Shown here: positions 17,551 to 30,731 of the stretch, in pieces
Layout of the letters: each line of letters starts with the position of its first letter
Numbering within the stretch: the first letter of the stretch is position 1
Assembly: GCA_964017195.1 (NCBI GenBank)
Contig: OZ024898.1
Coordinates: forward strand, 11,877,630-11,941,629
Direction of reading: 5' to 3'
DNA length: 64,000 nucleotides
DNA from: Siderastrea radians
Taxonomy: Eukaryota > Cnidaria > Anthozoa > Scleractinia > Rhizangiidae
The notes under the pieces: model-generated
Databases searched by the model: none
What the model saw: the letters and a program-made list of their open reading frames with translations, nothing else
What the model was told of the DNA's origin: nothing
Position numbers and translations under genes: made by a program

Positions 17551-17781
17551 AAGATAATCTGGATTGAAAACCATCCAATCTTCTGCAAGGAAGCATCGCA
17601 GATCGACATTGACAACAAAGCATACATGGCTTTCTGCTTCTTCAACTGTTGTCGTCAATGTAACGCGGATTACTACATGAGTCTTCCCAAAAGTTCCAGG
17701 GAATACTGTTTAAAAAAAGCTTATGGGTGTGCTGGTCATTGCGTCAAGGAAAGCCTATTGAACACAAAAATAAAAGGATAG
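17551..17781 (+). pseudogene. headless second exon of a secreted Cys-rich protein (copy A)
   Basis: This is the paralogue of exon 24144-24377. The acceptor (ttctttcacag) and a 76-codon frame to TAG are intact, and it encodes FNCCRQCNADYYMSLP with the family core. It differs in three ways: one conserved cysteine (the one after YYM) is serine; the C-terminus is one residue shorter because of a TAG; and no first exon with a signal peptide and C-x-C-x3-C is visible upstream to 11.9 kb. Ten of 13 differing codons change the amino acid. I call it a pseudogene or orphan exon. Splicing from an unseen upstream exon would change that. The biochemical role of the family is unknown. Confidence 0.7.
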
Positions 17782-18160
17782 TGAAGAAAAGAGTATATTC
17801 CCGCCTCACGGACACAGTTATAGTATTGTTGCGTCCAATCAAAACTACGTTCTTGTTTTACTCTGTCAAATATAGCCGATTATGTTAAATATACCTTGTT
17901 TTATTTATTCTCACGAGTACGGCATTGTATGGCAATGGGTACACATGACATAAATAAGCATCCTGAAAATAATTTACAGAAAGAAATAACTTTATTGTTT
18001 CCTACAACTACTGGAATAGTCTGTTGTTAAGTTTGCTGAGGGTAAATCTTTTTTGTTGCAACACGAATACACGTGGGAATATTCGATTTTATTTAATTAC
18101 ATCGCAATAAATCTTTAAAATTGAAAGGATCAGTAACTAGAGGATTTTACCTTGATAAAT

Positions 18161-18960
18161 CACCAAATTCTTAGCGGAGCCAGCGCGCTAGCGCGTCAGC
18201 GGAGCTCCATTGCTAAGGAAATTTGGTAACCTGTGAAGCCAAAAAATTTTGGTAGTGACGTATTAGTCACGTGACCGTACGTCCGTACATCCATACGTCC
18301 GTCCGTCCGCACCAGAGGGCTACCAATACACTTCATACACTGGATATAACCCTGTGCTGAATCCCGTGTGTTTTTGGCGCGAAATCGCATGTTGATCCGC
18401 GTTGTAGCAAAACAAGCAAAGACAACAAAAGTCAAAAACAATTGTTAATGGAAAAAAAAGTTCAAAAGAACACTTAGTTGTCTTTTTGGTGGAAGGGGAA
18501 AAGTTCAATTTAGGCGAAAGAAATTAGGCGATAAAGTTCAAATTTGCCTCGTCGGTTCTGTTCAAACTCGGTCGGCACACCGCTTGACGCCAAATATAGC
18601 AGAGCTAGTGCTTTTTTGGTTTTTTCTGTCCACAACCATGGTTTTTACGGCGTTTTGAACACATTTTGCCAGGAAAAACACCAGCATTTTCATGCTGATA
18701 GGCAGCTTGTCATGAAGAAAGAAATAAGTATTAAAATTTAGTGGCCTAGTCACCGTCATCTCACGCCGACGAGCCGGGTTCGACACTCAGCGGGAGCAGG
18801 TAGGTTTTTTTTTTTTGTTTTTTTTTTTTTTAATTTAACGACTTTTTTATTTAACGACTTTCACAAATTAATAACTGGCAGCAAAAACAAAACAAAACAA
18901 AAAAAAAACAGACAAAACAAAAAGGGGGGCTCCGCTTTTAGGCTTGGCTAAATCTATATA
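18161..18960 (+). repeat. interspersed repeat with tRNA-like promoter boxes (copy in duplication A)
   Basis: It starts with a small inverted motif (ccaaattcttagc...gctaaggaaatttgg) and runs through 'gacgtattagtcacgtgacc' and CCGTACGTCC repeats. It carries an A-box-like 'tggcctagtc' at 18742 and a B-box-like 'gggttcgacactc' at 18777. It ends in poly-T and poly-A tracts and the tail 'ggctccgcttttaggcttgg'. Relatives are at 1-1104 and 24755-25599. Confidence 0.7.
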
Positions 18961-19269
18961 TTAGAAGAGATATAAATGGAATTTTATGCGAGTGGGTAAG
19001 ATGAAGTAGAATTTTGATCTTTATAAGAAGTTGTAGTAAGGCTGGTGCCAGATGTCATTATTAATGTGGTTGAGGGAGGGGTTAGAATATTGGGGCTGGG
19101 TGAAAAATTGGAGTAAGAATGCTAAAAGTGAACTGTTTGACAACGACTTATCCCTAAAGTTCATTTCGTCTAGTGTTTATTAGTCTTGTTGCTGTAGGAA
19201 ATAAGTGGCTTGCAAACAAACCTTGGGATCGATTTGGAGGTCTCTACCTTGCGTTAAATGACCATCCTG

Positions 19270-19765
19270 CCGGAATCTTTGGTATAACTGTTACGACGTT
19301 CTAACTTTTGAATCTGTGGATAAAATCTGCTCAAGTGTGACCATTCATACGAATACTTTTTAGGAAGTTCTTAGTTTCCTGTGGCTGCTTATTATGCCAC
19401 AGAAGGCGCTTCTATCTAAGTGTGATCATTCAATTGAGAGCCCTTCCCTGATCAGTACTTGAAATTAGGTCGTGCAGTTTATTTTGCTACGCAAGGTGGT
19501 TATAACCTTTGAGTCTGAGGATGAAATCATTAAGTGTGAATATTCAAATGAAACCTCTTCAACAATTCTTTCCAGTAGTATTCTTTATTATGCTGTGCAA
19601 GGTGATTCCAACGTTTGAGTCTGTGGATGAGATCCTAAAATGTAGCAATTCAAATGAATGCCACTGCGGACCAATTGCTCTGCAGCTGGTTGTCTTTCTA
19701 TTAAAGGTGGAACCAACTTTGAGTCTGGGGATGAAATCCTGAAGTATATCCTTATTCAATAAGAA
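19270..19765 (+). repeat. 106-bp satellite, about 5 diverged units
   Basis: Blocks such as 'ttttgaatctgtggat', 'gtgaccattcatacgaa' and 'ttgagtctgtggatga' recur at roughly 100-bp spacing. They are duplicated with the surrounding segment (copy at 25930-26420). Confidence 0.7.
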
Positions 19766-28356: not shown

Positions 28357-28364
28357 GTTTTATA
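28357..28364 (-). promoter_or_regulatory. TATA box of the 27449-28269 gene
   Basis: The - strand reads GATATAAAAC, about 90 bp before the ATG at 28269. The spacing is nearly the same as in the neighbouring gene at 30030-30731, which supports both as promoters. Confidence 0.6.
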
Positions 28365-28434
28365 TCACGAACGCGGAACATGGACTGACTCCACTGTTTG
28401 TGTCTTGCTTCTGATTCGTTGCCTTAAGAGGTAA

Positions 28435-29795
28435 TAATTAACTAATAATTAACTTATTCATCAGAGCATGACATCGATTGGGTTACTTTATGAAAAAGCA
28501 CGTACAACTTTGGCTAAAGCTCAATACTGCATTGCTTTCTTGCAGATTTAAAATATTTCAAAATTTAAAGGCTAACCACGAAATTGGTGACTTTTTTTGG
28601 TGTAACATTGTATGGTTTTAAATATAAAATCGTGCAAATTAGAGCTTAATTTCTGCACGAAAACAAACTCTTTTGTTTATCGGAATTTTTTCCTGTTTGG
28701 CGTCGAGAGCAGACAACGTAGGTTGTGCGGTCTGTTCGATCTTTAATTATCGCTCTTACTGCCATTTTAAGTTACCCTACCGTTAATTTTTCCGCAATCG
28801 CTCAAGCAAACATAAGGTGACTATTCAAAAATATTGTATCAGTGTTTTTATCAAAACAAAGCTCTTAATGAAAGAGTATGATTTTCCTGCTAAGAAATCC
28901 AGATGCAATATTGCAACGTGTTCGAAAGTCTGACTTACGTAAAATAGACGTAATTAGATTTTAATTGTCCATCACAGTTTTTCATGTTTTGGGACATCGT
29001 GATGTTTGCTTGCGTCAACGGGAAGGTCTTTCAGAGGCCTTTTTGTTGCAGTTATTCACAATTCGCACGACTGCATCTGGGACCACTGATGTCAATAGAT
29101 AATTGAATTCAAGTGCACGTTCTGAAAACGTCTTTCTATCTTTTTAACAACAATATCGTTAATTACCTTACGTATCCAAAGTTTTCGGTTCTGCAACTTT
29201 AAAAGGATTTTAAGTGTTGTGGGCGATACATTACCTCGGCTGACGCCAAAGTCAATTTAAATTGTTTTCGAAAAAGGTGATTTTTTCTTGCTTGTGTCGC
29301 TAAGATCACAAAAAAATGTGTGGCTCTGTGGGTTTTAACCGACTTTGAAAATCAACAAAACGTTAATTTGTTTGTGAATTTACGTTTGTTAAATATATTG
29401 AACCTGCGGATGGGTCTAATTGCTTTAAAAACTTAGCGGTTTTTCATCTCTAGCTATTTTGGTTGTACTTAATATAACGTCGTTGGTACCTTCGACATGA
29501 ATTTTCAAACATTTTCTGGGTTCTTTGTGAAGTTTTTATGGTGAAAAACTGATAACAAACAAGTAGTGTCCGAGTGTGACAAGATATTGCGGTAGTCGAA
29601 AAGTCCCTAAACGTTGTTTATGCTTAGGAGATCTTTTGGTTTGATCAATTTTATTATTGCTCGGTAGAATTTATTATAAAGAGAGGTCCCGACTGGACTT
29701 CTAAGGGAAGGGATTTTTGTGTATTTCTTTTTGCTTATTTTGTTCTTCAGACAAAACCCCAGAAATTAAGCAACACACTGTTCTTTGTTTCATAC
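28435..29795. other. spacer between two - strand Cys-rich genes
   Basis: AT-rich sequence with only short chance frames and no satellite or TIR element that I can identify. It should hold the upstream region of the 27449-28269 gene and the 3' end of the 30030-30731 gene. Confidence 0.5.
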
Positions 29796-30029
29796 CTTTA
29801 TTCAGCTCATTAGTTACAAAACGAAACAAACTGCAGTAACAAACTTTCGCATACAGGACCAGACAGCTGAAAAGCTAAACTGATTACATCAAAATTGACA
29901 AACTTATTGCTACTTAAGATCTACCAAAACATTATCCGAACTCTTTTTTTTGTTGACATAACATGGCGTTGCTAAAACTAGCGGTCAACCAGAGCTTGGT
30001 GAACTCAACATCACAGCACAGTCATTTAT

Positions 30030-30731
30030 TTAGCCCTGAACGGGCGGGAACCTGCGATAGTTTTCTGGGGGGTTGTGTTTCGCCAAACATTTACACATGC
30101 ACTTGTAGCTCGCGCGGTAGCAGTACTCCGGCCCCCCGAGGTAACCTCCGAGCAAAGTGAGGCATTTGTAATACTTGGCGTTGCAAGCGCGGCAGCAGTC
30201 GAAAAGGTACAGGCACAGCCATTTGCACTTGTGGTTTCTGCTGAACACAACTGTAGATGCCAGCACGCAGTTGATTGGATAGCTTTGGAAACGGTAGAAA
30301 CTTGTATTTCTCTGTTCAAAAGATAAAGAAATCAACATAAGTTTCTGGTTGTAGCACGTCTGACAAGATGATTTTGAGCAAACGTGTTTAAAAGGTGTGA
30401 CAACAAAGCCTAAAAACGTGGAAAAACAGTATTTTAAAAAGGCAATTACCAGAGGTAGAAAGAAAGGCAATTATAAAGAGAGATTTACCGTTAAATAGTC
30501 TGGAACATCCAGCTTATCGCACTTTGGCTCACAGACGGACAAGCACTTTGTAGACTCGTCGTTCTGTTTAACGTTCACCACGGCGGACTCGTCTTCTTGG
30601 AGCAGTGAGCTGTCTGGTAGATAAGCCCTGTGCTCGGGACGGAAGAAACGCTTCACATGTTCTTCGGTGTTAAAAGCATTTGCCATGACCATGGCAAGAC
30701 AGAAAGAGACAAGAAAACTAAACGTCTTCAT
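30030..30731 (-). CDS. small secreted cysteine-rich protein, two exons (174 aa)
   Basis: Exon 1 is 30731-30489 and exon 2 is 30311-30030, with a phase-0 intron of only 177 bp. Residues 1-19 are a signal peptide (LVSFCLAMVMANA|FN). An acidic/basic pro-region with a KR site follows. Exon 1 ends with CLSVCEPKC (63-71). Exon 2 has NC, KC, WLC, FDCCRACNAKYYKC, a cysteine 13 residues on, and ASYKCMCKC, then a basic, proline-rich tail. There are 14 cysteines after the signal peptide. The core matches the 27449-28269 protein residue for residue at the cysteines, but the rest is highly diverged. AATAAA on the - strand near 29797-29802 would end the transcript. The function is unknown. Confidence 0.85.

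What the first reader, a model, noticed from the sequence alone, without database searches (positions are those of the whole stretch)
17551..30731. Cluster of an unrecognised family of small secreted cysteine-rich proteins
Three complete two-exon genes and two exon relics within 13 kb encode signal-peptide proteins of 150-174 aa with 12-14 cysteines. They share F-[DN]-C-C-R-x-C-N-x3-Y-x-C-L, then a cysteine 8-13 residues later, then C-x6-C-x3-C (with an extra C in two members). Outside the cysteines they are highly diverged, as expected for fast-evolving extracellular effectors. The set could be venom-type, antimicrobial, symbiosis-related or skeletal-matrix peptides. I cannot assign it to a known family, including the coral SCRiPs, from memory.
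Basis: partly seen in the sequence, partly recalled or inferred. Interest (0 to 1): 0.88.

Follow-up and report, generated by a model that had tools for sequence, protein, structure and literature searches.

The report
Conserved coral family of disulfide-rich proteins
Three neighbouring coral genes belong to an old, well-conserved family of small, apparently secreted proteins rich in cysteines; I found no description of it in print, and its job in the coral is still unknown.

Summary
Three intact two-exon genes (A +, B -, C -) encode leader-bearing proteins of 163, 150 and 174 aa with 12, 13 and 14 cysteines after the leader. The two 'exon relics' are the two ends of one 4.1 kb segmental duplication that carries only A exon 2 and most of B exon 2. 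No convincing Pfam, NCBIfam or PDB match was found, and the SCRiP cysteine motif is absent. But the family is not fast-evolving. B and C have relatives in 8 named stony-coral species of both suborders; C also in Desmophyllum pertusum, which lives without algae (recalled). A second A-B-C cluster lies 1.1 Mb away on the same chromosome. Between exon-2 copies synonymous sites are saturated while 17-25% of nonsynonymous sites differ: purifying selection. AlphaFold2 gives the exon-2 domain two long helices (block-mean pLDDT 90-94 over residues 41-80). Cysteines spaced Cx3Cx6C on one helix and Cx6Cx3C on the other suggest a three-rung disulfide zipper; the pairing is inferred. Most likely a secreted, mostly cationic, disulfide-locked helical hairpin that binds anionic extracellular surfaces in defence or mucus. 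Matrix, signalling and venom roles stay open. No expression data were available.

The parts
22694..22951 (+). gene A exon 1: hydrophobic leader, pro-region with KRK, CDCxxxC
   Evidence: ORF and GT donor; paralogue exon 36% identical at C12:10.78 Mb (L009)
24144..24377 (+). gene A exon 2: cysteine-rich domain, 9 Cys, stop
   Evidence: paralogue 57% identical
28075..28269 (-). gene B exon 1: leader, PVTR-type repeats, CDCxxxC
   Evidence: resembling exon-1 part in Porites P0042, P0050 by eye
27449..27706 (-). gene B exon 2: cysteine-rich domain, 10 Cys, stop
   Evidence: 12 relatives E 4e-32 to 2e-22
30489..30731 (-). gene C exon 1: leader, conserved EEHVKRFFRPEH pro-region, CxxxCxxxC
   Evidence: four C-type exon 1 copies in the genome, this one included
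30030..30311 (-). gene C exon 2: cysteine-rich domain, 11 Cys, stop
   Evidence: 29 relatives E 1e-38 to 4e-23; model m811f9d74a6e9
16966..21058 (.). segmental duplication, copy 1 (truncated)
23601..27693 (.). segmental duplication, copy 2 (inside intact genes A and B)
17551..17781 (+). A exon 2 copy without a recognisable exon 1; one family-wide cysteine replaced by Ser, stop one codon early
20815..21058 (-). B exon 2 copy lacking its first 13 nt, B's acceptor and B's exon 1
28359..28364 (-). TATA-like box, 95 nt before the ATG of B
30826..30831 (-). TATA-like box, 100 nt before the ATG of C (a second one at 130 nt); similar boxes before two C paralogues

Best explanation
The cluster is one of two paralogous A-B-C clusters of an old stony-coral family of secreted proteins. 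Exon 1 gives a signal peptide, a usually acidic pro-region and three cysteines; exon 2 gives a domain predicted to contain two long helices. Cysteines spaced Cx3Cx6C on helix 1 and Cx6Cx3C on helix 2 are inferred to pair rung by rung and lock an antiparallel hairpin, with the remaining cysteines tying the exon-1 CxC segment to it. The mature protein is inferred to be a very stable, usually cationic extracellular factor that binds anionic surfaces, such as microbial envelopes or mucus polysaccharide, as a host-defence or mucus-barrier protein, the acidic pro-region shielding it before release. Shown: gene structure, family, conservation, purifying selection. Predicted: leader, two helices. Inferred: antiparallel packing, disulfide pairing, binding partner, role.
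For: Gene models with matching phase-0 introns. 49 distinct related proteins in three searches; the 17 with an organism name come from 8 species that I know as stony corals; taxonomy was looked up for 3 of the 8. Second A-B-C cluster at C12:10.778-10.787 Mb in the same gene order, A turned. Exon-2 paralogue pairs: pS 0.82-0.92, pN 0.17-0.25 in the 5 intact-copy pairs; exon-1 C pairs omega 0.11-0.13. Model: mean pLDDT 78.7, block means 90-94 over residues 41-80. Mirror spacing in 51 of 57 sequences (45 exact, 6 with x7 for one x6). Domain net charge positive in 41 of 44 rows; exon-1 segment after residue 22 acidic in 5 of 7 own genes. TATA-like box 95-114 nt before the ATG in 4 of 7 own genes.
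Against: No expression, proteome or activity data. The charge is small in many rows (+1 to +5) and 0 or -1 in three, B's pro-region is +4 and the second A's is 0, so the cationic-effector reading is weak. A mirror ladder appears in 6%, 11% and 18% of random cysteine placements for A, B and C, so the spacing alone proves little. B has 13 cysteines, an odd number that needs a free or intermolecular one. Exon 1 of B is not conserved between its two copies (pN 0.52). Three of 7 own genes have no TATA-like box within 160 nt. Strong conservation also fits a matrix or signalling role at least as well.
Confidence: 0.38

Rival explanations
1. Structural protein of the coral extracellular or skeletal organic matrix: secreted, cross-linked by disulfides within and between chains, holding an organic sheet during calcification.
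For: All 17 named relatives are in stony corals, Desmophyllum included; odd cysteine numbers would allow cross-linking between chains; purifying selection; Pro/Thr-rich tails in some relatives (P0015, P0036, P0047).
Against: Domain mostly cationic, while many skeletal matrix proteins are acidic (recalled). No paper in the library holds the sequence strings or locus names that I searched; supplements were not searchable. No proteomic support.
Confidence: 0.27
2. Secreted signalling protein (hormone or cytokine-like) processed at a conserved basic site and acting on a receptor.
For: Few copies per subfamily, constraint, long conserved pro-region EEHVKRFFRPEH in C with KR; KRK before the CDC in A and its paralogue.
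Against: KR of C is missing in Porites harrisoni P0003; no fold match to a known ligand, which excludes none.
Confidence: 0.15
3. Venom component stored in nematocysts.
For: Small, leader-bearing, cysteine-rich, clustered copies in a cnidarian; weak Kunitz-type conkunitzin hit in PDB (E 0.54).
Against: Purifying, not diversifying, selection in exon 2; subfamilies shared across coral suborders; cysteines do not follow the SCRiP motif.
Confidence: 0.1
4. Factor specific to symbiosis with algae.
For: Found in reef corals with algae (recalled habit of the named species).
Against: Kept in Desmophyllum pertusum (P0020), which lives without algae (recalled).
Confidence: 0.05
5. Chance open frames or pseudogenes.
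For: None for the three genes; the two duplicated exon copies and one C copy at 11.40 Mb are indeed decayed or truncated.
Against: Relatives in other corals for B and C, intact splice sites, constraint between paralogues for A, B and C.
Confidence: 0.01

Closest known systems
SCRiPs (small cysteine-rich proteins of stony corals; PMC2652719, passages read)
   Same: Secreted, cysteine-rich, reported there as limited to stony corals, several diverged copies per species.
   Different: SCRiP mature part 41-48 aa with Cx6-7Cx4-6CPx3-6Cx4-6Cx5-6CCC; here 77-93 aa in exon 2 alone, CC not CCC, different spacing; 0 of 57 sequences match.
alpha-hairpinins (plant antimicrobial helical hairpins; PMC11591084, passages read)
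   Same: Two helices with Cx3C on each, here expected to be joined by disulfides.
   Different: alpha-hairpinins have 4-6 Cys and CX3CX4-20CX3C, and a CC beside the core excludes; here 22-27 residues lie between the two Cx3C, with further Cys inside and a CC. Resemblance of geometry only.
damicornin (coral antimicrobial peptide; PMC4306955, passages read)
   Same: Signal, acidic pro-region, cationic cysteine-rich C-terminal part (in C, its intact paralogues and the second B).
   Different: Damicornin is 40 residues with six Cys; here 12-14 Cys, part of them encoded by exon 1.
secreted phospholipase A2
   Same: CC inside a long helix of a disulfide-braced helix pair (recalled).
   Different: Catalytic CCxxHDxC (recalled motif) in 0 of 57 sequences.

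Membership tests
SCRiP | Cx6-7Cx4-6CPx3-6Cx4-6Cx5-6CCC in a 41-48 aa mature part | tested here: not met
   Regular expression on 57 sequences (49 database proteins, 8 own exons), 0 matches; definition
SCRiP | N-terminal signal peptide | tested here: inconclusive
   Hydrophobic leader in 7 of 7 own genes by Kyte-Doolittle; no cleavage-site predictor was run
alpha-hairpinin | CX3CX4-20CX3C with non-Cys X and no adjacent CC | tested here: not met
   22, 24 and 27 residues, with Cys inside, and CC present in A, B, C (sequences; definition)
alpha-hairpinin | antiparallel helix-loop-helix | tested here: inconclusive
   Two consecutive helices, 32-56 and 62-80, in the AlphaFold2 model; antiparallel packing is inferred, coordinates were not examined
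damicornin-type AMP | 40-residue cationic peptide with six Cys | tested here: not met
   9-11 Cys in 77-93 residues of exon 2; definition
secreted phospholipase A2 | CCxxHDxC catalytic motif (recalled) | tested here: not met
   0 of 57
any Pfam family | score above the curated cut-off | tested here: not met
   8 window exons: none reaches its cut-off. 24 rows (21 relatives, 3 window exons): best E 0.0054, CLLAC, one row; cut-offs shown only for the first row
any solved fold | significant structural match | tested here: inconclusive
cnidarian venom protein | presence in nematocysts | not testable with these tools
   no expression or proteome data held

The most novel reading that the evidence does not exclude
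A new protein fold class: a disulfide-zipped helical hairpin (Cx3Cx6C facing Cx6Cx3C) that arose in stony corals, was duplicated as a three-gene cluster before their two suborders parted, and has a conserved extracellular role particular to stony corals.
Probability: 0.25. Interest if true: 0.7.

Novelty: new variant of a known kind. Interest (0 to 1): 0.45.

Why it matters
Coral genomes hold many genes without a known function (PMC13044578, abstract and Results). This set gives a clean, testable one: few copies, one chromosome, a clear cysteine framework, relatives in both suborders, constraint shown. Localising it would tell whether a coral secreted family serves defence, skeleton or signalling. 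It also warns that 'cysteine-rich and diverged' need not mean fast-evolving effector.

Tried and rejected
Viral contigs: 44 stretches matched a pattern, none encodes a relative. Foldseek and VIA-align of both models: no significant match; this does not show the fold is new. Full-length model of an Orbicella relative: poor (mean pLDDT 57.4). Phospholipase A2 likeness considered from the CC and helices, dropped for lack of the catalytic motif. Positive selection: not seen in exon 2. The copy of A exon 2 against A: 9 nonsynonymous and 4 synonymous differences, omega 0.47; B exon 2 copy against B: 2 and 1, omega 0.44; too few to decide. Pairs with the decayed C copy give omega 0.08 (exon 2, 58 codons) and 0.43 (exon 1) and are not in the ranges quoted. 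Matches off C12, all weak, were left out: three on C3 and C2 (E 0.12-2.5, with stops), C382 (0.26, a stop), C6 and C7 (0.94 and 6.6, no stops), C4 (0.044, with stops). A-type relatives in other corals: the profile search that included A gave 20 proteins of 114 candidates, all B-type as I read them, so A may be lineage-specific or missing from the database. Paper searches by locus names, sequence strings and topic showed no description of the family; supplements could not be read, so it may sit unnamed in a table, for example among the 244 conserved dark orthogroups of PMC13044578 (abstract and Results read). Passages only were read of PMC2652719, PMC11591084 and PMC4306955, and of PMC10236652, which I did not use; other papers were seen as search listings. 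Rows left out of trees: 4 rows that did not fit the domain pattern (P0021, P0029, P0030, P0050), 13 rows (P0001, which is window A itself, and 12 database rows) that I judged duplicate, near-duplicate or degenerate, and also the two duplicated exon copies and the decayed C copy.

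Full report
What is there. The window is C12:11877630-11941629 of an unnamed 805 Mb genome. Three intact two-exon genes stand within 9 kb: A on the plus strand, B and C on the minus strand. All introns are GT-AG and phase 0, at about the same place in the protein. The lengths are 163, 150 and 174 aa. After the hydrophobic leader there are 12, 13 and 14 cysteines: three at the end of exon 1 (CxCxxxC in A and B, CxxxCxxxC in C) and 9, 10 and 11 in exon 2. A TATA-like box lies 95 nt before B and 100 nt before C, and similar boxes stand before two C paralogues; A, its paralogue and the second B have none within 160 nt. 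No cleavage-site predictor was available; the leader is judged by hydropathy (7 of 7 own genes).

The relics. The two extra exons belong to one segmental duplication, 16966-21058 against 23601-27693. Its identity is uneven: 83.6% at the left end, 94.0% in the middle, 97.2% over the right 2.5 kb; 3835 of 3985 aligned bases in the rows counted. It begins inside A's intron and ends 13 nt inside B's exon 2, so copy 1 holds A exon 2 without A's exon 1, and B exon 2 without its acceptor. The A copy has lost a cysteine shared by the family and stops one codon early.

The family. Three protein searches gave 49 distinct relatives (29, 12 and 8 new). Seventeen carry an organism name, from eight species: Porites harrisoni, P. 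evermanni, P. lobata, Montipora foliosa, Orbicella faveolata, Oculina patagonica, Pocillopora verrucosa, Desmophyllum pertusum. Taxonomy was looked up for three: Porites harrisoni is in suborder Refertina, Oculina and Desmophyllum in Vacatina, all Scleractinia; the rest I know as stony corals. Restriction to stony corals holds only at the sensitivity of this word-based search. In the own genome, A has one more copy, B one more, C three more, all on C12. A second A-B-C set lies at 10.778-10.787 Mb in the same gene order, with A in the other orientation. One C copy at 11.40 Mb has no GT where the donor should be, and its domain does not read on in frame after the first helix. In the tree of 44 exon-2 domains the second B groups with an Oculina and a Porites evermanni protein (95/84) and the second C with Oculina, Orbicella and Pocillopora proteins (99/94), while the window's B and C lie elsewhere. 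This suggests that the cluster was duplicated before these corals parted; the tree has few columns and a midpoint root. In Oculina, B and C proteins have consecutive gene numbers twice (G031584/G031585, G032030/G032031), which suggests that they are neighbours there too. A stands far apart, on a long branch, with no relative found in other species.

Selection. Between own-genome paralogues synonymous differences in exon 2 are saturated (pS 0.82-0.92) while pN is 0.17-0.25, in all five pairs of intact copies. Exon 1 of C gives omega 0.11-0.13, exon 1 of A 0.16; exon 1 of B is not conserved between its copies (pN 0.52). These are NG86 values, mostly with saturated sites, so the ratio is only an order of size. 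The direction is constraint, not diversification.

Structure. The exon-2 domain of C, with 39 sequences, gives mean pLDDT 78.7 and pTM 0.67, with helices at 32-56 and 62-80 and block means of 90-94 for residues 41-80. Cysteines 41, 45 and 52 lie in the first helix and 66, 73 and 77 in the second (for the numbering). The sums 41+77, 45+73 and 52+66 are all 118, as an antiparallel ladder would require. The same Cx3Cx6C...Cx6Cx3C occurs in 45 of 57 sequences, and with one extra residue in 6 more; the 6 without it are truncated or have lost cysteines. Random placement of the same number of cysteines gives some such ladder in 6-18% of trials, so only the recurrence with different loop lengths (8, 10, 13 in A, B, C) and the helix boundaries make it persuasive. 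Packing and pairing were not read from coordinates. No solved fold matches significantly.

What it does. Domain net charge is positive in 41 of 44 rows, often by little, and the exon-1 part is acidic in 5 of 7 own genes. Acidic pro-region and cationic cysteine-rich end is the plan of damicornin, so a defence or mucus-barrier protein binding anionic surfaces is my first choice, at 0.38. A matrix protein is close behind, and signalling and venom are possible. Dependence on algae is unlikely given Desmophyllum (its algae-free life is recalled).

Known relatives. It fails the SCRiP motif, the alpha-hairpinin definition, the damicornin layout and the phospholipase motif. It may work like a helical hairpin but is not a member of those families. 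The kind (coral secreted cysteine-rich proteins) is known; this cysteine framework was not found described in the papers searched, supplements excepted.

Noticed in passing
window 49151-49822, 51821-52726, 56796-57464, 59221-60124 (-): Two tandem cytochrome P450 gene copies, pieces 86-92% identical; Pfam p450 confirmed for the first copy.
   Followed up: partly
window 34352-36310 and 38108-40063: Inverted repeat with 2 kb arms, 96.5% identical, about 1.8 kb apart; possibly a mobile element.
   Followed up: no
window 33538-34331: Tandem array of about 106 bp units whose sequence recurs at about 1293-1567, 14838-15040, 19472-19745 and 26117-26390.
   Followed up: no
L011 2706-2930 and 5058-5231 (C12:11.40 Mb): A decayed C-type copy: no GT after exon 1, second half of the domain not readable in frame; a near-identical relative is in the protein database (P0029).
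   Followed up: partly
P0007, P0008 versus L012, L010: Two database proteins are nearly identical to two C paralogues of this genome, so a very close or the same species is already public.
   Followed up: no
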